Made by a program: the position numbers and the translations under genes. This document shows, piece after piece, positions 13,188 to 57,641 of a DNA stretch of 64,000 nt. The stretch lies in assembly GCF_014196765.1 (NCBI RefSeq), contig NZ_JACIEE010000011.1, forward strand, positions 1 to 64,000, in the 5' to 3' direction. Every line of letters starts with the position of its first letter. Position 1 is the stretch's first letter. This DNA comes from Mycoplana azooxidifex. Its GTDB lineage: Bacteria > Pseudomonadota > Alphaproteobacteria > Rhizobiales > Rhizobiaceae. Below the pieces are notes generated by a model. It saw only the letters and a list, made by a program, of their open reading frames with translations. It was not told the origin of the DNA and searched no databases.

Positions 13188-13323
13188 GGGATGATGCTCC
13201 ATCAAGAATGCGCGAACTATAACAAGCGCGTCCGGGAGCCGGCAATTCGTGCAATGGACGTAGGTTTGTCAAAACGAAAGGAGGGCGGCCGGAACGCCGC
13301 CAGCTGCCCCCCCCTGTCGCCAA

Positions 13324-45080: not shown

Positions 45081-45157
45081 GCACCCGTAGCTCAGCTGGA
45101 TAGAGTGTTGGATTCCGATTCCAAAGGTCACAGGTTCGAATCCTGTCGGGTGCGCCA
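45081..45157 (+). tRNA. tRNA-Arg (anticodon CCG)
   Basis: A 77-nt cloverleaf. The acceptor stem GCACCCG/CGGGTGC carries an encoded CCA, the anticodon stem TTGGA/TCCAA has loop TTCCGAT (anticodon CCG, 45115-45117 region), and the T-arm contains GGTTCGAATCC. It reads CGG arginine codons. Decayed genes follow immediately, so its 3' end may have served as an integration site. Confidence 0.95.
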
Positions 45158-47861: not shown

Positions 47862-49973
47862 CTACTGCAGCTTCGTCGCCGGCTCCCTGGCCCAGAACCG
47901 AAGCTTGCCGAGTTTGCCCACGAAAGCGTTGACGGCCTTGCTGCCATCGAGTTCGACCATGCCTTCGTCCATGTCCTCGACGCCGGCCTTCTCAAACAAT
48001 GGCAGGGCGGCGGCGACATATCCGATGAACTTGCAGTGGGCGAAGGCGTCGGCGACGAAGTCCCGCACCGTAGCTTCCTTCAGCAGGGCGGGCACGAAAT
48101 CCGTGCCGGGCAGCAAGGCAACCGCGTCGTAGAGCACCGACGGGGCGCCGTCGATCATCTGCTGGGCCGGCAGCAACGTCCCGTCCGAAAGCGTGACGCC
48201 GCCGACCTTGGGTGCGATCAATTCGACGGCACCCTTCTCGCCTTCGATCGCCGATGCGACGGCCTGCACCAGGGCTGCATCGCTTCCATCGGTGACAAGG
48301 ATGCCGAGCTTCCTGCCTTCGAAGCGCTTCGGGCCATTTTCCATGATGCTGAGCGCCGGCGAGGGCTTGAGATCCTGCCGCGGGCCGACAGCGGCGTCCG
48401 CAGGTTTCGGCATCTTCGCAAGGCCGAGGGCTGAGGCGACCTTGTCTGCAAGGGTTTCGTCGATATTCAAGAGATGCGACACCATCCGTTCGCGGATTGC
48501 CGGCGTCTCGACCTTGCTCAGCTCGAACGTCAGCGCCATGGCGATGTGGCGCTGCTCGGGAGGGGTCTGGCTGATGAAGAACTGCCGGGCCTGGCTGTAG
48601 TGATCGGCGAAACTTTCGGGGCGCAGCCGCACCTTCTGGCCGGCTTCGTCCGACGGGAAGTGACGATATCCCGACACCGGCGATTCGCGTGGTCCTTCGC
48701 CCCAGGAGTTCGGCTGATAGTTGACCCGGCCGGCCGGGTTCCTCATCGCCATGTGCCCGTCCTGCTGGAAGGTGTGGAAGGGACACTTCGGGGCATTGAT
48801 GGGCAAGTGGGTGAAATTGGTGCTGCCGAGGCGTTTCAACTGCGTGTCGAGATAGGAGAAGTTACGGCCCTGCAGCAGCGGATCGTTGCTGAAGCCGATG
48901 CCGGGAGGAACGTTCTGCGTCATGAACGCTACCTGTTCGGTTTCGGCGAAGAAGTTTTCCGGCATGCGGTCCAGGACGAGCCGGCCGATCGGCTGCACGG
49001 GCAGGATCTCTTCCGGGACGATCTTGGTGGGATCGAGGACGTCGAAATCGAAGCTGTCGGCGAAATCCTCATCGAACAGTTGCACACACAGCTCCCATTC
49101 CGGGAAGTTGCCTGACTGGATCGCCTGCCAGAGGTCGCGTCGGTGAAAGTCGGGGTCCGCCCCGTTGATCTTCACGGCCTCGTTCCAGACGACCGACTGA
49201 AGGCCGAGCTTCGGCTTCCAGTGAAACTTGACGAAGGTGGATTCGTCCTTTGCGTTGACGAAGCGGAACGTATGGACGCCGAAGCCCTCCATGAAACGGA
49301 AGGATCGCGGAATGGCGCCGTCCGACATCACCCACATGACCATGTGCATGCTTTCGGGCGTCAGGCTGATGAAGTCCCAGAAGTTGTCGTGCGCCGACTG
49401 GGCCTGCGGGAAGCCGCGGTCGGGCTCCGGTTTCACCGCATGGATGACGTCCGGAAACTTGATTGCGTCCTGAATGAAGAAGACCGGGATATTGTTTCCC
49501 ACGAGATCCCAGTTGCCCTCCCTGGTGTAGAGCTTGACGGCGAAGCCGCGGACGTCGCGGGCAAGGTCGACGGATCCCTTGCTGCCGGCGACCGTGGAAA
49601 AGCGCACGAACGCCGGGGTCTTCTCGCCGGCCCGCTGAAGGAAATCGGCCTTCGTGTAGCGCGCAAGCGGTTCATAGGTTTCGAAGAAGCCGTGGGCGCC
49701 GTAGCCGCGCGCGTGCACGACCCGCTCGGGAATGCGCTCATGATCGAAATGAAAGATCTTCTCGCGGAAGTGGAAGTCTTCGATCAGCGCCGGCCCGCGC
49801 GCACCGACGCGCAGCGTGTTCTGGTCATCGTCGACCGGCGCGCCCTGTGCGGTCGTCAGGACGTCGTGTCCGTCCTCGGCAAACTGGTGAAGTTCGCCCC
49901 CCTTTCCCCGATGAAGCTTCTGGTCGTGGATCGTTGCAAGGTCGTTCGCCTGCTTGGAGTTCTTGCGTGGCAT
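47862..49973 (-). CDS. katE: Large-subunit catalase (clade 2, HPII type)
   Basis: A 703-residue haem catalase with the active-site His in [12 protein letters not shown] (near residue 85), the distal Asn region, and [20 protein letters not shown]. The C-terminal 150 residues form the class I glutamine-amidotransferase-like (DJ-1) domain ([11 protein letters not shown]) that marks clade 2 enzymes. The ATG at 49973 follows GGGAGG; an upstream extension in the same frame is not family-like. It diverges from the kaiC operon, which may share stress control. Confidence 0.93.
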
Positions 49974-50327
49974 GGCCCGCCTCCCATTGTCGGAATAGGG
50001 AGTAATTTCCGGGCCGGGCAGAAGTTCCATCGGGGAACGCCCAGGGACCTGCAAAACACGCGATGGGCGCCTGGATTGTCGATCGTGCGATCGACGCATT
50101 CGGAAAACAACCGCAAGGCTCGCGCTGGTAAGCGGTTGATTTGAACGACGGGGATAGCCGATCTCAAGTCGATTCAGATAGATGACTTTTTGCATGCTTG
50201 GGTCATAGTTGGCCGCGAGGGCTTGAGGCGACGTTAATGGAGGTTCGATACAGCCGTTACCTATGCCGAGTCGCGCCGCGTCCCAATTTGAGGTATCGGT
50301 GGCAATCTCAACTTCTGTGAGTGCGCA
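49974..50327. other. Divergent katE-kaiC intergenic region
   Basis: A 354-bp gap with no convincing coding frame. I looked for GGAAC-N16/17-CGTT (EcfG-type stress promoter) on both strands and did not find a clean copy. The kaiC start lacks a strong Shine-Dalgarno sequence. Confidence 0.4.
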
Positions 50328-52007
50328 ATGTCCTTTTCCCAAGCCATTTCAAAATCCTCCACCGGTGTTGACGGTTTCGATGAGCTGACGCTCGGGGGCG
50401 TCCCGACCGGTCGCCCGACGCTCGTCTGCGGTTCAGCCGGTTGCGGCAAGACGCTTTTTGCGACGACGTTCCTGGTCCACGGCGCGCGCGACCTGGACGA
50501 GCCTGGCGTTTTCGTCACCTTCGAGGAGCGTCCGGGCGATATCGTCAGCAATGTCGCCTCTCTGGGATTCGCGCTCGACAGGTTGGTCGACGACCAAAAG
50601 ATCGTTTTCGAATACATCGCATTGGACAGTTCGGAGCTTGAGGAGGCCGGCGACTTTGATCTGGAAGGTCTCTTCCTCCGGCTGGAGGCGGCGATAGATT
50701 CAGTCGGTGCCAAGCGGGTCGTGCTGGACACCATCGAAAGTCTGTTCTCGGTCTTCTCCAATGAGGCGATCCTGCGCGCCGAAATCCGCCGGTTGTTCGA
50801 CTGGCTGAAAGACAAAGGGATGACGACGGTCATCACCGCGGAGCGGGGTGATGGCTCGCTCACGCGGCAAGGGCTGGAGGAGTATGTCTCCGACTGCGTG
50901 ATCTTGCTTGACCATCGCGTGCAGAACCAGATTTCGACGCGACGCCTCCGTGTCGTGAAGTATCGCGGCACCGCACATGGCACGAACGAGTATCCGTTCC
51001 TCATCGACCAGGACGGATTCAGTGTGCTGCCTGTGTCTTCGCTTGGTCTGGATCACAAGGTTTCCGAGGAGCGTGTCTCGTCCGGGATTGCGGACCTCGA
51101 CGACATGCTGACGGGAGGCGGTTTCCACCGGGCGTCCAGCATCCTCGTCTCCGGCGTCGCCGGTTCCGGCAAATCGTCGGTCGCCGCAAGCTTTGCGGAC
51201 GCTGCCTGCACCGCCGGCGAACGTGCGCTCGTCTTTTCCTTCGAGGAATCGGCCGATCAATTCGTCAGGAACATGAACTCCCTCGGGATCGATCTCGGCC
51301 GGTGGATCAAATCAGACAAGCTTCGCTTCATCGCCACGAGGCCGACATTTTACAGCATCGAGATGCACCTGGCCGTGATGTTGCGCGAGGTGAACAAGTT
51401 CAACCCCGGCCTTGTCGTCCTCGATCCGATCTCCTCCTTCCTGGAAAGCGGCGACCGCATGGAAATCCAGTCGATGCTGCTGCGTGTGGTCGATTTTCTG
51501 AAGAGCCGTGGCGTGACTGCCGTCCTCACGCATCTCATGCACGGCCAGGAGAGGCAGGTGCAGACCGACGCCGGCCTGTCATCCATCATGGATGCCTGGA
51601 TTCTCCTGCTCAACCGTGAAGTCAACGGCGAATTCAATCGCGAACTCTATCTGCTCAAGGCGCGGGGCCTGGCGCACTCCAATCAGGTCCGCGAATTCAT
51701 CATGAGCGGCGAGGGGATCAAGCTCGTTCCTCCGTATCTCGGCGAGCATGGTGCCCTCACCGGTTCCGCGCGAAAGAGCGAAGAAGGCAAATCCCGGCGC
51801 GCGGAAATGCGGCGCCGAGCGGAATTGGCGAAAGCCCAACTGCAGATTCAGCAAAAGCGGCGGCGTGCCAAGGCCCAGATGGAAGCGTTGCAGGCAGAGC
51901 TCGATGCGGACGAGATAGAGCTCAACGCGATGACACAGAACGAAGACGAGTATTTACGCCAGGCAGAAAACGACCAGCTCGAAATGGGGAAAAGTCGCAA
52001 ATCTTAG
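50328..52007 (+). CDS. kaiC: KaiC-family double-domain ATPase
   Basis: A 559-residue protein with two RecA-like KaiC domains. CI has Walker A GSAGCGKT (residues 35-42) and the catalytic FEERPGD. CII has Walker [10 protein letters not shown] (near 276) and FEESAD. In the CII segment aligned by eye to the cyanobacterial phosphorylation loop, [12 protein letters not shown] places Ser418-Ser419 at the S431/T432 sites. Residues ~480-559 form a highly charged coiled coil ([20 protein letters not shown]). kaiB and a histidine kinase gene follow, so it probably drives a stress or timing signal. Confidence 0.9.
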
Positions 52008-52037
52008 CGGCTGGTAATTGCTCCGAAGGAAATGCCA

Positions 52038-52328
52038 ATGACGCTCGCAAAGCCTCCTCGAAAACTTATCCTGTATGTGGCCGGACAGACGCCGAAATCC
52101 CTTGCCGCAATCGCCAACCTGGAAAGGATATGCGCCGAAGACCTCCCTGGGCAATACGCCGTGGAGGTGATCGATTTGAGACAGGATCCAAAGCTCGCGC
52201 GCGAGCACGGCATCGTGGCGATCCCGACTCTCGTGCGGGAGCTGCCGATCCCGCTGCGCAAGCTCATCGGTGATCTTTCCGACACCCATAAGGTGCTGAC
52301 GAATCTCAAGCTCGGCGACGGCGCATGA
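52038..52328 (+). CDS. kaiB: KaiB-family thioredoxin-like protein
   Basis: About 96 residues with the KaiB start [17 protein letters not shown], then [28 protein letters not shown]. KaiB is fold-switching and binds KaiC. The ATG at 52038 has AAGGA 7 nt upstream, better placed than for the ATG at 52032. It lies 30 bp after kaiC and overlaps the kinase gene by 4 nt (ATGA), so the three genes are one unit. Confidence 0.92.
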
Positions 52329-53719
52329 CGTCTGCTTCGTCTTTGGACAATGATCTCCTGATCGCCGACCTTCGTCACAGGCTCGCCGAGGCCGAGGAAA
52401 CGCTGCGAGCAATCCGGGATAACGAGGTCGACGCCCTGGTCATGCGTGGTTCTCAGGCTGAGGAGATATTCACGATCGGGGGCGACCCCGATTCCTACAG
52501 GACATTCATGGAAGTCATGGAACCGGGCGCGGCTGCGCTCGACGGTTCCGGGCGCGTGCTCTACGCCAACAGCACGCTCACACGGCTGCTCGGCACGTCG
52601 CTGGCCCAATTGCAGGGAAAGGTGCTGGCGGACGCTTTGGCGGCCGATACCGGGAAGGAAATCGGGCAGTTGCTCGGCGAAGCACATACGACCCGACAAA
52701 GTCGCGAAGTTCGATTTCCTCGGGGCGAAGAGGTCGATCGTCACTTCATCGTAATGGCGAGTCCATTGCAGTTCGGCACGACTTCAGGGCATGCCGTGAC
52801 CTTTGCCGACGTGACCGAGCGGGTTCTCAACGAGGGCGTCGAGCAGAGCGAACACGCCGCTCGCGCGGTCATTGCCTCGGCCAACGAGGCCGTTCTGGTA
52901 TGCGATCGCGACGGCGTCATTACCCACGCCAACGCTGCGGCCAGGATTGTCTATGACGGAAACCCGATCGGGCAGGTCTTCGCCGATATCATTCCGCTCC
53001 GGTTCCGCGATTCCACTGGGTTCCTCCAGGCAGACGACATGCTTGCGAAGGTGATCGCCGGTACCCCTTTGCGAGGAATTGAAGCCACCGCATCGAAGGC
53101 TCCGAAGGTGAAGGACTATCTGATCAGTGCCGCCCCCTTGCGGATTGCCGGGGATCGCATCAGCGGTGCCGTTGTCACCATGGTCGATCTTTCTGAGCGC
53201 ATGGCCGCCGAAAAACAGCAGAACCTTCTGACGCGCGAATTCGACCATCGTGTAAAGAACATCCTTGCCTTGGTCGTATCTATCAGCGCCCGGACAGCTT
53301 CCAATACAGATACGCTGCAGGCCTTCCAGAAGGCATTTTCCGGTCGCATCGAGGCGTTGGCAGCAACCCATACCTTGCTCCTGGAGAAATCTTGGTCATC
53401 CCTTGAACTGCGCAGTATCGTCATGTCCGAGCTAACACCATTTATCGAGGCAACCGCTGATCAGGTTACGATCGAGGGTTTGAACGTTGCGATCACGCCT
53501 CAAACTGCGATTTCCTTTGGCCTGATCGTGCATGAGCTTGCGACCAACGCGGTGAAATACGGCGCGCTCTCACAACAGGGCGGGCACATCACTGTGCGCG
53601 CGGTTGGCCGCGATGATGGAAAAAATGGTGCATTCGTCCTTGAATGGCGCGAGTCTGGTGGGCCGCGCGTCACCCCCCCCCGAACGAAAGGGGTTCGGAC
53701 ACGCGGTCATCACGCGTAG
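52325..53719 (+). CDS. PAS-HWE sensor histidine kinase, frameshifted at the C-terminus
   Basis: A soluble kinase with an N-terminal coiled coil, two PAS domains (~50-165, ~180-295), a phospho-acceptor [13 protein letters not shown] (His near 310) and the N-box [14 protein letters not shown]. As written, the frame ends at 53719 with an abnormal tail (GVRTRGHHA). Dropping one C from the C9 run at 53673-53681 restores [17 protein letters not shown]...CRITIP and a stop at 53810, the normal HWE ATPase end. The G-box is therefore lost in the sequenced state. It is the third gene of kaiC-kaiB-HK. Confidence 0.85.
53673..53681 (+). other. C9 homopolymer causing frameshift
   Basis: Nine consecutive C in the kinase gene. 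Eight would keep the frame. It may be a phase-variation tract, a fixed mutation or a sequencing error. Confidence 0.8.
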
Positions 53720-53810
53720 CCTACGGTATTCCGGTGGAGGCGCAGAGTTCGATTTTGACCCATCAGGGGTTATCTGTCGCATCACGATTCCATCGGATGC
53801 ATTGATCTAA

Positions 53811-53850
53811 GGCGCGCCGCGATCCTTCAGATTCGCGCCCGGGCTTTGAT
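53811..53850. repeat. Dispersed repeat, partial copy C
   Basis: GCGCGCCGCGATCCTTCAGA with a short continuation begins directly after the frame-corrected stop (53810) of the kinase gene, as the related copies at 2265 and 44796 begin after theirs. Confidence 0.55.
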
Positions 53851-53938
53851 TTTGCGGAACATGCTCCCGGTCTTCAATCGGCCAAGGTCGGGGCTGCGCC
53901 GGGATGCTCGCGGCGTTGGCCAGCAATCACGACCGCGG

Positions 53939-55885
53939 TCACGGCGTGACGATGTTGAAGTCGGGTTCGAAGGTGTCCATCACCGACGCGAAGGTGTCGA
54001 GGACACCGAGGTCGCCCTCTGTCGAGAGGTGCGCTTGTTCGATGATCTCGTTCGCGCGCGAGGGTTGCAGGAGCAACGCCGCGAGCACGACCTTCGGACC
54101 AGCGACAGTGAGCTGGGCGTTGTCGACGTGACCTTTACGAGCGTTGAGCACGCCGTTGCGGACCCACATGGTCCATTCGTCGCCGAAGTCGCTGAAGGTG
54201 AAGTTGACGCGCACGTCGAGGTCATTTGCTCGCTCGCCGATGAGGTGGACGCCGGCGAAGTCGAACAGCAGATGGATCGGCATCGCGAGGATGGTGTCCT
54301 GGGTGTCGGTGCTGATCTTGCCTTTGGTCGCGACGCCTTCGCGCAGCTCCTTGGCCGCCGTCAGGAAGATCGCGCGGTATTGGGGGACCTCCTGTTGGTA
54401 CCCGAGCTGTTCGTAGGCGTCGGCCTGGAGTTGCTTGGCTTCGACGTCGCCGGGGTCGGCGAACACGAGGTGGTGCAGGATCTGCACGGCCCACCGGTAG
54501 TCGCCAGCATCGAACGCCTTGCTGCCTTCGGCGAGGATCTTGTCGCGACCGATGAGCGCTACGTGGCGTTTGGCATGCTCCTCGGGAAGGAGCGGCAGGA
54601 TGCTGGCCGGGTCGCCGTCCCAGAATCCGAGCTCCTTGCTGAACACGGCGCGCACGTTGTGGTGAAGGCCGCCGTGGTAAAAGCGGTTGTACCACTTCTT
54701 TCCAAGGGCGTCGGGGAGCTCGACGATCTCCGCGGCTTCGAGCGGCGTGAGGCCCTGGTTGGCCTGCCGGAGGGCCTGGTCGTGGATGTACTTGTACATG
54801 TCGCGCTGGGACTCGAGGAACGTGACGACGTTCGCATTGCCCCATACCGGCCAGGTGTGCGAGCCCCAGTGGACCTCGGCCTCGTCACCCCAGCGAACGA
54901 GGGTCTCGTCGATGTAGCGGGCGAAGTTGCGGGCATCGCGGGTGCGGGCCCCGCGAAGGGTCTGAATGTTGTGCATGGTATGGTTGGCGTTCTCGGCGCA
55001 GGTGAGCGCCTTGATCTCGGGGATCCAGATGTGGAATTCCTCGGGCGCCTCGGTGTCGGGGGCGTAGAGGAATTCGAATGTCCAGCCACCGAGCGTGCGG
55101 ACTTCACCGGTCCTGGTGATGCCGTCGGTGGGGGAGATGTAGCTCATCTGGGTGTTCATCAGGTCGAAGCCGCCGCTCAGGCCAATGGTCACACGCCCGC
55201 GGTCGCTGGGGGGCAGGAGGAGCCCGAACGTGTAGGCCATGCGCCGTGACATGGCGTGGCCGGTGACCACGTTCTCGCCGATCGCCAACCGGTCGAACGA
55301 CTCGATGGTGCCGGGCGCGATGATCGGGATCCTGCCGGCGACGACGTCGGCTTCCTCGACGACCCCCTTCACGCCGGCATAGTGGTCGAAGTGGGTGTGC
55401 GTGTAGATCACCGCGACGACGGGCTTGTCGTTCTTCATCTCGCGGCGGAACAGTTCGAGACCGGCTTTGGCCAGCCGGACGCTGGTGCTGGTGTCGATGA
55501 TCACGAGGCCGTCCGGAGCATCGACGATGGTCAGAGCGGCGCTGAGCCGCACCTGGTAGAGGCCGGGGACGACCTCGTACAGCCCGGCTCGCTTGATGAG
55601 TTGGGACTGGCGCCACAGGCTCGGGTTGACCGAGTCGGGGGCCGGGGCGTCGTCAGCGATGTACGCGAGGGGGGTACCGTCGTAGATCAACGTGCCGTCG
55701 TCGCTGACGAGACGATCTCCGAAACCGGCGATGAAACCGCGGTCCACGTCGTGGAAGTCGGCCCGGTCCTGCATCGCGTACTTCGCCAGCGCCGCCTTGT
55801 TGACGTCGGCCGTGAAGGTCGTCGCCGGCTTCGGATTTTGGGCCATGGGTGTTGTCCCTTCCTGACTGCTGTGCTTCGTTGCCAT
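53939..55885 (-). CDS. Alkylsulfatase, metallo-beta-lactamase type
   Basis: A 648-residue SdsA1/YjcS-like alkyl sulfatase with zinc motif THTHFDHYAG (near residue 165), PEEFHIWIPEIKALTCAEN with further ligands, a dimerisation region, and a C-terminal SCP2-like domain for the alkyl chain (~520-648). It hydrolyses primary or secondary alkyl sulfates to alcohol and sulfate. No signal peptide is clear. ATGs at 55885 and 55846 both have good RBSs. It is the last gene of a transporter-SulP-sulfatase operon. Confidence 0.9.
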   Translation of the reverse strand: MATKHSSQEGTTPMAQNPKPATTFTADVNKAALAKYAMQDRADFHDVDRGFIAGFGDRLVSDDGTLIYDGTPLAYIADDAPAPDSVNPSLWRQSQLIKRAGLYEVVPGLYQVRLSAALTIVDAPDGLVIIDTSTSVRLAKAGLELFRREMKNDKPVVAVIYTHTHFDHYAGVKGVVEEADVVAGRIPIIAPGTIESFDRLAIGENVVTGHAMSRRMAYTFGLLLPPSDRGRVTIGLSGGFDLMNTQMSYISPTDGITRTGEVRTLGGWTFEFLYAPDTEAPEEFHIWIPEIKALTCAENANHTMHNIQTLRGARTRDARNFARYIDETLVRWGDEAEVHWGSHTWPVWGNANVVTFLESQRDMYKYIHDQALRQANQGLTPLEAAEIVELPDALGKKWYNRFYHGGLHHNVRAVFSKELGFWDGDPASILPLLPEEHAKRHVALIGRDKILAEGSKAFDAGDYRWAVQILHHLVFADPGDVEAKQLQADAYEQLGYQQEVPQYRAIFLTAAKELREGVATKGKISTDTQDTILAMPIHLLFDFAGVHLIGERANDLDVRVNFTFSDFGDEWTMWVRNGVLNARKGHVDNAQLTVAGPKVVLAALLLQPSRANEIIEQAHLSTEGDLGVLDTFASVMDTFEPDFNIVTP

Positions 55886-55928
55886 CGTCGTCTCTCCTGA
55901 TTGAAGGGGTTGCAGCGGTTCGCCGATC

Positions 55929-57641
55929 TCACTTGGGTGCCGTAGATTGGCCGAGCCACTCCTGCGCCGCGGCCGCGGCGGTGTTCATGGCCGCGCCGAT
56001 CTGCGGAGTGGCCAGGAAGACGTTCTCCTCGCCGATCTTCTGAAGCATGCCGGTACGTGCCAACTGGTCCCGCACTGCAGGGTCGACTCCCACCAGCATC
56101 AGCTTGCTGTCGTGTGCGCGCAGCGCCTCGACATAGCGACTGAGGACGTTGAGAAACGTACTTCCAACCTCCGGCTGGCCGCGCAGGATCAGGGCGACGA
56201 CTGCATTGCGTGTGTCGTCTGCCGACGGCAGCGTCTTCTCCAGGGTCTTGGCGGCTGCGAAGAACAGACTGCCGGAGATGTGCAGAACCGTGAAACGATC
56301 GCTCGGCAAGGCGGGGGGCGCCGGGCGCTCTTCAGGGAAGCCTCCCGGAACGAGGGCCAGATGCACGATCTTGATCTGATTAGCCTGTCCGATCACGTAA
56401 AGCAGGAGGCTGAACACCACACCCAGGAAGACGGCGTAATGCAACGGCATGAACAAGGTCGCGAGAAAGGTCAGGACCATCGCCGCGGCCGAAATCCTGC
56501 TTGTGTTCCAGATCATCTGGGCCTGCTGGGTCCGCAATCCCTGGTAGCCCGCCACGATGAGGAGTGCGGCGAGAGCCGGCATCGGCACGAGTTCGGCCAG
56601 CGGAGCCGCAAGCAGAACCACGAGAACGACGCAGAAACCCCCAAAGATATTTGTCCAGCGCGATCGCGCGCCGGCGCCGATGACCAGCACGGTCCCCGAG
56701 ATCGACCCGCCTGCCGGCAGGCCGCCGACCAGGCTCGTGGCGATGTTACCGACGCCCTGGCCGAGAAAGTCGCCGGAGACATCGGGGTACTTGCCGTCCG
56801 GATTGGGATAGGCCTGGCCGACGCCTGCCCCCTGGACCAGGCCGATGATCGCGACCGACAGAGCCGGCAGCAACAATGGGACCAGATAATCTGGGGTCGG
56901 CAGCGTCAGTTGAGGCAGATCGTTCGGAATGCCGGCGATATCGCGCACGATCTTGACCGTGTGCCATTTGGCTCCCAGGCCCAAGGTCGGGAGGGACAGA
57001 ACCGCCAACAGCAGTGTAGCCAGGGCGATCGCCAGCACGAAGGCGAACTTGCGAAAGTGCGTTCTGAGCAGCACGACGATCAGGGCCATCGTCAGCCCGC
57101 CGATCAGGGTGGTCGCGAGGTCGATCTGGCCAAGTCGGAGGAACAGGTCCAGCGCCCGGGCCACGTTATTGGAGAAAGGGCTTTGGTATCCGGTCAATGC
57201 ACCCAGCTGGCCGAGAACGATGAGCACGGCGACACCATTCAGGAAACCGGTCATGACGGCATCGGAGACGAAGCGCAGGACAAAGCCCAGTCGCAGAAGT
57301 CCAGCCGCGATCTGGAACAGCCCAACGAGAACCACCAGCGACGACAGAGCCGCAATCCTGCTGGCGGGGGGAACCGCCGCGAGTTCGTCACCGGCGACGA
57401 CCGAAAGCGCGGCCGTGGTGGAGACGTTCATGAATACCGAGCTGGTGAAGATCGCGGCCACCGGCACCGCAACGATCAAGGTATAAATGCCCAACACGGG
57501 ATTGACCGCCGTCAGCAGCGCATGGGCCATCGCTTGCGGCACGCTTACGATTGCGAACGTAAGGCCGGCGACGAAGTCCGACTTCAGATTTGAACGCTGG
57601 GGCGTCAGGTCTCGAATTCGGCTGCGAAAGCTGAGTTGCAT
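55929..57641 (-). CDS. SulP-family anion transporter with STAS domain
   Basis: A 570-residue inner-membrane SulP protein with about 12 helices (FVAGLTFAIVSVPQAMAHAL near residue 25) and a C-terminal STAS domain (~435-550). It carries sulfate or other anions. It lies between the BASS transporter and alkylsulfatase genes and starts 4 bp after the former, so it is likely to move the sulfate released or to import it. Confidence 0.9.
   Translation of the reverse strand: MQLSFRSRIRDLTPQRSNLKSDFVAGLTFAIVSVPQAMAHALLTAVNPVLGIYTLIVAVPVAAIFTSSVFMNVSTTAALSVVAGDELAAVPPASRIAALSSLVVLVGLFQIAAGLLRLGFVLRFVSDAVMTGFLNGVAVLIVLGQLGALTGYQSPFSNNVARALDLFLRLGQIDLATTLIGGLTMALIVVLLRTHFRKFAFVLAIALATLLLAVLSLPTLGLGAKWHTVKIVRDIAGIPNDLPQLTLPTPDYLVPLLLPALSVAIIGLVQGAGVGQAYPNPDGKYPDVSGDFLGQGVGNIATSLVGGLPAGGSISGTVLVIGAGARSRWTNIFGGFCVVLVVLLAAPLAELVPMPALAALLIVAGYQGLRTQQAQMIWNTSRISAAAMVLTFLATLFMPLHYAVFLGVVFSLLLYVIGQANQIKIVHLALVPGGFPEERPAPPALPSDRFTVLHISGSLFFAAAKTLEKTLPSADDTRNAVVALILRGQPEVGSTFLNVLSRYVEALRAHDSKLMLVGVDPAVRDQLARTGMLQKIGEENVFLATPQIGAAMNTAAAAAQEWLGQSTAPK

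What the first reader, a model, noticed from the sequence alone, without database searches (positions are those of the whole stretch)
50328..53810. KaiC-KaiB-HWE kinase operon outside cyanobacteria
Three tightly coupled genes encode a double-domain KaiC, KaiB and a PAS-HWE histidine kinase, with no KaiA. KaiC keeps both Walker A motifs and a Ser-Ser pair where cyanobacterial phosphosites lie. This suggests a timer or stress module signalling to an HWE kinase, divergent from catalase katE. Related kaiBC-kinase loci are known in some purple bacteria, and the role in rhizobia is poorly defined.
Basis: partly seen in the sequence, partly recalled or inferred. Interest (0 to 1): 0.75.

Follow-up and report, generated by a model that had tools for sequence, protein, structure and literature searches.

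The report
KaiBC timer operon with partner kinase
This bacterium carries a known kind of protein timer (KaiC and KaiB) next to a signalling enzyme; the enzyme begins with a short, unnamed module of about fifty amino acids whose clear copies, in the genomes we searched, all sit right behind the timer genes, so it may be the plug that connects the timer to the cell.

Summary
The operon is real. KaiC (50328-52007) and KaiB (52032-52328) closely match the Rhodobacter sphaeroides KaiBC hourglass, with Ser-Ser phosphosites and the C-terminal tail. A PAS-PAS-HWE kinase gene overlaps kaiB by 4 bp. It is not open to 53810: it stops at 53719 because the frame changes in a C9 run (53673-53681); 28 of 28 relatives of its clade have closed frames. 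katE linkage is not conserved (0 of 80 loci). kaiBC with a downstream kinase is published, so this is a new member of a known kind. The new part is the kinase's N-terminal ~50 residues: an unannotated helix-hairpin leader found behind kaiC-kaiB from alphaproteobacteria to Bacteroidota and archaea, fused to different outputs. In four genome sets every match at E<=1e-6 lay directly downstream of kaiB (76 of 76), and no KaiB-less genome had one; 32 of 32 matches outside the profile's own rows agree. I propose that it docks the output protein on the KaiB-KaiC complex. Four KaiC2-KaiB loci lack it, eight weak Myxococcota matches lie elsewhere, and binding is untested.

The parts
50328..52007 (+). 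kaiC, double-domain KaiC2-type (R. sphaeroides-like), 559 aa
   Evidence: PF06745 E 6.5e-102, two stretches; 8dba KaiC E 2.7e-273, aligned 6-557
50430..50453 (+). CI Walker A GSAGCGKT (KaiC residues 35-42)
51153..51176 (+). CII Walker A GVAGSGKS (KaiC residues 276-283)
51564..51584 (+). phosphosite stretch TDAGLSS, residues 413-419; Ser418-Ser419 pair
   Evidence: alignments; Ser at 418 in 79 of 80 and Ser at 419 in 79 of 80 related KaiC rows
51759..52004 (+). C-terminal tail of KaiC aligned with the coiled-coil extension of R. sphaeroides KaiC
   Evidence: alignment continues to query residue 557; 76 of 80 related rows have a residue at position 540
52032..52328 (+). kaiB, 98 aa
   Evidence: PF07689 E 4.6e-24; 8fwj KaiB E 1.4e-40
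52325..53719 (+). histidine kinase ORF: leader, PAS, PAS, HWE domain; 464 aa, cut short by a frame change
   Evidence: HWE_HK E 7.3e-24; PAS_4, two stretches
52337..52483 (+). N-terminal leader (kinase residues ~5-53): predicted long helix plus beta-hairpin; conserved behind kaiB across phyla; the profile row used was 52361-52516
   Evidence: 49/50, 66, 67/69, 70, 91
52496..52825 (+). first PAS domain (residues ~58-167)
53237..53479 (+). HWE_HK phosphoacceptor domain (residues 305-385; FDHRVKN at 306-312)
53673..53681 (+). run of nine C in which the kinase frame changes
   Evidence: closed frames of relatives
53682..53810 (+). C-terminal kinase stretch (G-box region) in another frame; the finding's end coordinate
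   Evidence: against L006
47862..49973 (-). katE-type long catalase, divergent neighbour; not part of the conserved unit
   Evidence: Catalase E 3.2e-179, Catalase_C E 1e-11; no katE hit in 80 related kaiC loci

Best explanation
The operon encodes a KaiA-independent KaiBC hourglass of the R. sphaeroides (KaiC2, coiled-coil-tailed) type plus its dedicated partner kinase. KaiC autophosphorylates on Ser418/Ser419 and is reset by KaiB and by the ATP/ADP ratio (inferred from the solved homologue). The kinase is coupled to the timer through its N-terminal leader, a ~27-residue helix followed by a beta-hairpin before the first PAS domain, which docks on the KaiB-KaiC2 complex, so that KaiC state sets kinase activity (output direction). 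Shown here: the identity of the parts, and the strict gene-level association of the leader with kaiB, and in the loci examined with tailed KaiC2, across phyla while the catalytic output domain changes. Inferred: docking, output direction and timing. In this assembly the kinase's ATP-binding domain is truncated by a frame change, so this copy is either mis-sequenced or broken.
For: KaiC and KaiB match R. sphaeroides KaiC/KaiB over nearly their full length including the KaiC tail. Leader profile A1 (43 rows, 58% mean column identity) at E<=1e-6: 12 of 249 order genomes, 6 of 219 phylum genomes and 19 of 296 Bacteroidota genomes have it, one copy each, all directly downstream of a KaiB hit; 0 of 225, 0 of 186 and 0 of 269 KaiB-less genomes have it. 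In 50 genomes of KaiC2 loci: 42 matches in 41 genomes, all beside kaiB; 41 of 42 KaiB+ genomes and 0 of 8 KaiB-less ones carry it. Myxococcota: 3 of 3 strong matches behind KaiB. Without the matches that are rows of the profile: 32 of 32 behind KaiB (with 66, 69). Tail-less KaiC with KaiB: no leader in 19 of 19 such loci examined. Outputs differ: HWE, HisKA (some with REC or Hpt), HisKA_2, GGDEF-EAL, PAS only; 6 label changes on the KaiC tree, the leader-less clade counted as one label. The leader is better conserved than the PAS. Model: helix 5-31, strands 37-41 and 46-50.
Against: No binding data. Four KaiC2-KaiB loci have no leader next door (L080, L124, L126, L129). The KaiB-less, leader-less KaiC2 rows form one clade, so 0 of 8 may be a single loss. 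The profile was built from kaiB-adjacent proteins, so diverged leaders elsewhere could be missed; 9 weak Myxococcota matches (E 1.6e-4 to 0.01) exist, of which one (L116) follows a KaiB and eight show none in the ~3 kb held. In the order, phylum, Bacteroidota and Myxococcota searches only part of the first-look candidates was scored in many genomes. The leader could simply be inherited with the operon. The kinase is truncated in this assembly.
Confidence: 0.55

Rival explanations
1. Input direction: the PAS kinase senses redox, oxygen or light and signals to KaiBC, as suggested in print for R. sphaeroides; the leader docks the sensor on KaiC/KaiB to reset the timer.
For: Proposed for R. sphaeroides and R. 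rubrum (passages); the leader is followed by a PAS domain in 17 of the 18 proteins scanned (in L068 no PAS passed E 1e-5).
Against: The conserved end is the leader, while the catalytic end is exchanged (HWE, HisKA, GGDEF-EAL, none), as expected for adaptors of one signal to many outputs.
Confidence: 0.2
2. The leader is only the N-cap/dimerisation helix of a PAS protein that has been inherited with kaiBC; it has no timer-docking role.
For: It precedes a PAS domain and is predicted helical; the 50 listed of 1,338 Foldseek matches for the leader+PAS model are PAS/LOV proteins.
Against: Conservation is highest in the leader (0.77 at residues 21-40 against 0.25-0.65 in the PAS); of 41 leader-bearing KaiC2 genomes 40 have exactly one copy and one has two, each beside kaiB; it survives exchanges of the output domain.
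Confidence: 0.2
3. In this strain the module is decaying: the kinase is a pseudogene and KaiBC has lost its output.
For: Frame change before the G-box; 0 of 6 congeners have the KaiC, so the cassette is sporadic.
Against: The sequence after the break keeps close similarity to L006; a C9 run is a usual place for sequencing error (general knowledge); KaiC and KaiB are intact.
Confidence: 0.15

Closest known systems
KaiBC hourglass of Rhodobacter (Cereibacter) sphaeroides (PMC10076222; passages read, part of the abstract among them)
   Same: Same KaiC type over nearly its whole length including the coiled-coil tail, same Ser-Ser phosphosites, same KaiB type; a histidine kinase or PAS protein in the kaiBC operon there is reported in PMC5520375 and PMC6627678 (passages).
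   Different: The main text of the structural paper has 0 hits for 'operon', 'histidine' and 'SasA', so the kinase is not treated under those words; the window kinase is frame-broken; divergent katE was seen only in the window.
'Circadian clock operon' BRADO1478-1481 of photosynthetic Bradyrhizobium (PMC3899966; passages read)
   Same: kaiC, kaiB, PAS/PAC histidine kinase in this order.
   Different: BRADO1481 is a CheY-like regulator downstream; behind the window kinase lies a convergent alkyl sulfatase instead.
kaiC-kaiB 'orange group' with a downstream kinase or GGDEF/EAL protein (PMC3164672; section 17 read, plus passages)
   Same: The gene-order rule itself: a kinase or GGDEF/EAL protein right behind kaiC or kaiB outside cyanobacteria.
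   Different: The section and passages read do not describe a shared N-terminal leader in this group; their N-terminal module RtaNt belongs to a KaiB-less group and resembles SasA/receiver domains. The supplementary figures were not seen.
SasA (cyanobacterial KaiC-interacting kinase; recalled)
   Same: Kinase coupled to KaiC through an N-terminal module.
   Different: SasA uses a KaiB-like thioredoxin-fold domain and is HisKA-type; here a helix-hairpin leader and an HWE kinase.

Membership tests
KaiC2 / R. sphaeroides-type KaiBC hourglass | two complete P-loop domains | tested here: met
KaiC2 / R. sphaeroides-type KaiBC hourglass | Ser-Ser at the CII phosphosites | tested here: met
KaiC2 / R. 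sphaeroides-type KaiBC hourglass | C-terminal coiled-coil extension | tested here: met
   alignment to 8dba runs to query residue 557 of 559 (sequence only)
KaiC2 / R. sphaeroides-type KaiBC hourglass | kaiB beside kaiC | tested here: met
KaiC2 / R. sphaeroides-type KaiBC hourglass | no KaiA | tested here: inconclusive
   None among the three operon proteins; the whole genome was not searched for KaiA or KaiA3-type proteins
KaiC2 / R. sphaeroides-type KaiBC hourglass | ATP/ADP-driven, damped phosphorylation timing | not testable with these tools
   Needs purified proteins
HWE histidine kinase | HWE_HK domain | tested here: met
   E 7.3e-24
HWE histidine kinase | His box, N box and WxE motif (motif names recalled) | tested here: met
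   FDHRVKN 306-312, [12 protein letters not shown] 403-414, EWRESGG 440-446
HWE histidine kinase | complete ATP-binding domain in one frame | tested here: not met
   ORF stops at 53719; the G-box stretch is in another frame
SasA-type KaiC-interacting kinase | N-terminal KaiB-like thioredoxin-fold domain | tested here: not met
   no KaiB domain in the kinase; helix plus hairpin
SasA-type KaiC-interacting kinase | binding to KaiC | not testable with these tools
   No complex prediction or assay available
RtaNt kinases of KaiB-less KaiC (PMC3164672) | no kaiB in the genome | tested here: not met
   kaiB present at 52032-52328
RtaNt kinases of KaiB-less KaiC (PMC3164672) | RtaNt consensus at the N-terminus | not tested
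Leader-bearing kaiB-linked output proteins (group defined here) | leader profile match directly behind kaiB | tested here: met
   Window E 1.8e-24, 54 bp after the KaiB hit (the window is itself a row of the profile)

The most novel reading that the evidence does not exclude
The leader is an undescribed KaiBC-docking adaptor: a ~50-residue helix-hairpin module of bacteria and archaea that goes with kaiB next to tailed KaiC2 and plugs exchangeable outputs (HWE or HisKA phosphorelays, c-di-GMP enzymes, stand-alone PAS proteins) into the same KaiA-less timer. It would do for KaiBC hourglasses what SasA does for the cyanobacterial clock, possibly by reading the coiled-coil register of the KaiC tail.
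Probability: 0.5. Interest if true: 0.75.

Novelty: new member of a known kind. Interest (0 to 1): 0.6.

Why it matters
How KaiA-less KaiBC timers outside cyanobacteria pass their state to the cell is open. If the leader is the docking piece, then one short sequence profile names the output protein of tailed KaiC2-type timers, predicts that outputs range from phosphorelay to c-di-GMP, and gives a 50-residue handle that can be deleted or fused in a laboratory strain to test timing directly.

Tried and rejected
Stress-linked katE partner: rejected as a conserved feature; katE gives no tblastn hit (E<=1e-4) in any of the 80 loci L006-L085, of which 7 (L006, L053, L054, L060, L071, L072, L084) have less than 2 kb upstream of kaiC. 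Conserved response regulator behind the kinase: 19 alphaproteobacterial loci were read by eye; in L007 almost no DNA follows the kinase, only L016 shows an obvious receiver-like ORF, L034 has a PAS-type protein; no family search was run on these neighbours. Foreign composition: the operon is 59.6% GC against 63.4% for the window, too small a shift to conclude transfer. Sigma-70 promoter in 49900-54000: 0 found, shuffled mean 1.1. Known domain for the leader: Pfam finds none in the window row at E<=1 (best of any other row E 0.026) and PDB sequences give nothing convincing (best E 0.019 over 16 positions). Foldseek with leader+PAS: the 50 listed matches are PAS/LOV proteins. My own expectation, recalled, that this leader is common in PAS kinases in general was not borne out.

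Literature on the leader: searches 32 ('EVDALVV': 0 papers), 54, 55, 77 and 78 and the passages read from them gave no description of it; most subscription papers are not held, and the Legionella kai operon paper PMC4113418 is not held.

Correction made on checking: two of the phylum matches (G463, G402) are themselves rows of the profile (L062, L082), so the count outside the training rows is 32, not 34.
Full report
What is there. kaiC (50328-52007), kaiB (52032-52328) and a kinase gene starting at 52325 lie on the + strand, 24 bp apart and then overlapping by 4 bp. Pfam and NCBIfam recognise KaiC, KaiB and a PAS-PAS-HWE histidine kinase. NCBIfam's circadian KaiC and KaiB equivalog cut-offs (TIGR02655, TIGR02654, and PRK09301 for KaiB) are not reached, whereas the broader PRK09302 KaiC model is. 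The solved chains closest in sequence are R. sphaeroides KaiC 8dba/8fwi/8db3 (E 3e-255 to 3e-273, aligned from residue 6 to 557 for the two full-length chains) and the KaiB in 8fwj (E 1.4e-40).

Phosphosites. TDAGLSS at residues 413-419 aligns with TDAGLSS of R. sphaeroides KaiC and with T-D-S-H-I-S-T in chain 8zn6, labelled only KaiC and cyanobacterial-type by my reading. S. elongatus chains such as 1u9i match the same stretch, but their alignments were not printed. In 80 related KaiC rows, Ser is at 418 in 79, Ser at 419 in 79, and Thr at 413 in 66. PMC5520375 (passages) states that KaiC2 proteins show two serines. PMC10076222 (passages) reports Ser413/Ser414, the coiled-coil dodecamer and resetting by the ATP-to-ADP ratio.

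The kinase is broken in this assembly. The ORF stops at 53719. The expected C-terminal stretch continues to 53810 in another frame, and the switch lies in C9 at 53673-53681, one of two homopolymers of 8 or more in the 64-kb window. All 28 relatives of the same clade with a kinase in hand (L006-L034 without L032) have a closed frame of 479-499 aa. The nearest, L006, matches the window's other-frame stretch closely. I cannot tell a sequencing error from a real recent break.

What is already known. A histidine kinase or PAS protein in the kaiBC operon is in print for R. sphaeroides (PMC5520375 and PMC6627678, passages), for R. rubrum, where both kaiBC clusters are preceded by a PAS kinase (PMC10931921, passages), and for Bradyrhizobium BRADO1478-1481 (PMC3899966, passages). 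PMC3164672 (section 17) says that almost all kaiC-kaiB clusters outside cyanobacteria have a kinase or GGDEF/EAL protein immediately downstream. R. palustris depends on kaiC for growth in 24-h cycles and has T-S-S phosphosites and a longer C-terminus (PMC4794148, passages). The locus is therefore a new member of a known kind.

Distribution. 1 of 7 genomes of the genus (this one; E<=1e-50) and 5 of 151 relatives (E<=1e-100) have a KaiC. Of the five, two besides the window are the same type (74% and 77% identity) and two are 41% relatives with kaiB upstream and no match to the window kinase within the 4.4 kb held. In a KaiC2 tree of 56 rows the window pairs with L006, a Beijerinckiaceae MAG (100/99), not with Rhizobium populisoli. 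The cassette is sporadic.

The leader. tblastn of the window kinase against 80 kaiC-centred loci showed that in many distant phyla mainly its N-terminus matched. Reading those ORFs gave 67 of 80 loci with the same N-terminal stretch (majority consensus: [44 protein letters not shown]). The other 13 are: L032 and L061, where the DNA held ends; nine loci without a kaiB hit (L054, L057, L059, L065, L066, L067, L070, L072, L074); L071, weak; and L080, with kaiB but no leader. A1 aligns 42 of the 67 with the window. Mean share of the commonest residue is 0.77 in residues 21-40 and 0.25-0.65 per ten residues in the following PAS. No Pfam family and no convincing PDB sequence matches it.

Genome-wide test. 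Profile A1 at E<=1e-6, with KaiB PF07689 on the same genomes. Order: 12 of 249 with leader, 24 with KaiB. Phylum: 6 of 219 and 33. Bacteroidota: 19 of 296 and 27. Fifty genomes of the KaiC2 loci: 41 with leader (42 matches) and 42 with KaiB. All 76 distinct matches lie 27-305 bp downstream of a KaiB hit on the same strand (75 if G199 and G538, which show the same place, are one genome). No KaiB-less genome in these four sets has a leader. Myxococcota at E<=0.01, without a genome-wide KaiB search: 3 of 197 genomes have a strong match (E<=2.6e-20), all behind KaiB in the ~3 kb held. Eight further genomes give nine partial matches (E 1.6e-4 or weaker), one of which (L116) is itself behind a divergent KaiC-KaiB and eight of which show no KaiB in the ~3 kb held.

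How far this is circular. The profile rows come from kaiC-centred loci, so for those rows adjacency is by construction. One search compared the places of the matches with the places of the 42 locus rows: G199, G463, G402, G578 and G568 are rows of the profile, as is the window. Setting these and the fifty-genome set aside leaves 32 matches (10 in the order set, 2 further in the phylum set, 18 in Bacteroidota, 2 in Myxococcota), and 32 of 32 are behind KaiB. For the fifty genomes the informative result is that no second copy lies away from kaiB, although for example 125 of 125 candidates were scored in G537; in 48 of the fifty all candidates were scored, in two (G545, G568) a part. In many genomes of the other sets only part of the first-look candidates was scored. 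The Fisher values printed ignore kinship and should not be read as probabilities.

Which KaiC. Among KaiB places without a leader I examined 29 stretches (L091-L099, L123-L142). In 20, KaiC is present but scores 462 bits or less to a KaiC2 profile, and in 19 of these the match ends before the tail (the exception is L097). In 5 no KaiC is in the stretch (L099, L125, L128, L130, L142). In 3, KaiC2 with tail is present without leader (L124, L126, L129). In 1 (L138) a diverged leader follows KaiB below the search threshold. Not examined: 3 of 12 KaiB+ leader-less genomes in the order set, 13 of 27 in the phylum set, 1 of 8 in Bacteroidota, and second KaiB places of some examined genomes. With L080 there are four KaiC2-KaiB loci without a leader.

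Outputs. Pfam on 18 leader proteins: HWE (L006, L035, L039), HisKA_2 (L051), HisKA, some with receiver or Hpt (L053, L056, L058, L060, L068, L069, L075, L078, L079, L083), GGDEF-EAL (L064, L076, L077), PAS only (L045). The KaiC tree needs 6 changes of label for six classes, one of the classes being the KaiB-less, leader-less group. The classes of the rows not scanned were set by length or by similarity to the window kinase or to a scanned neighbour. L060 (Gallionella, HisKA) and L076 (Gallionellales, GGDEF-EAL) are sisters with 100/100 support, and both keep the leader. The KaiB-less, leader-less KaiC form one clade nested among leader-bearing ones, so their joint absence is probably one event (the root is at the midpoint, for drawing only).

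Structure. AlphaFold2 on the window's first 180 residues with 47 relatives: pLDDT 89, helix 5-31, strands 37-41 and 46-50, then PAS; pLDDT 73-78 around the hairpin. The Foldseek matches listed are PAS/LOV proteins. The contact to a Kai protein cannot be seen in these outputs.

Mechanism. Shown: parts, order, conservation and the company the leader keeps. From the homologue: KaiC autophosphorylation without KaiA, and an hourglass reset by ATP/ADP. Inferred: the leader docks the output protein on KaiB-KaiC2. I favour output over input because the conserved end is the leader and the exchanged end is the catalytic one. Whether the dock is KaiB, KaiC or the tail is open; the joint occurrence with KaiB and tailed KaiC2 favours the complex.

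Noticed in passing
window 53673-53681: C9 run that shifts the kinase frame before the G-box; the frame is closed in 28 of 28 relatives of the clade.
   Followed up: partly
window 13307-13314: The only other homopolymer of 8 or more bases in the window (C8); not checked for a frame break.
   Followed up: no
window 53942-57641, - strand: Alkyl sulfatase (Alkyl_sulf_dimr/Alkyl_sulf_C) next to a SulP/STAS sulfate transporter, converging on the kai operon: a possible alkyl-sulfate use pair.
   Followed up: no
L080, L124, L126, L129: KaiC2-KaiB pairs without a leader protein next door; behind L126 KaiB, after ~370 bp, lies a receiver-like ORF (by eye).
   Followed up: partly
L035-L085, many loci: Many Bacteroidota, archaeal and other KaiC2 loci carry two, once three, kaiB genes in tandem between kaiC and the leader gene; L006-L034 have one (L032 has none in the DNA held).
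   Followed up: no
L045 and similar Bacteroidales loci: Leader protein of ~235 aa with PAS and no catalytic domain by Pfam in L045, the one scanned: a possible pure adaptor.
   Followed up: no
window 45081-45157: tRNA-Arg(ccg) about 5 kb upstream of the kai operon; an island boundary was not tested.
   Followed up: no
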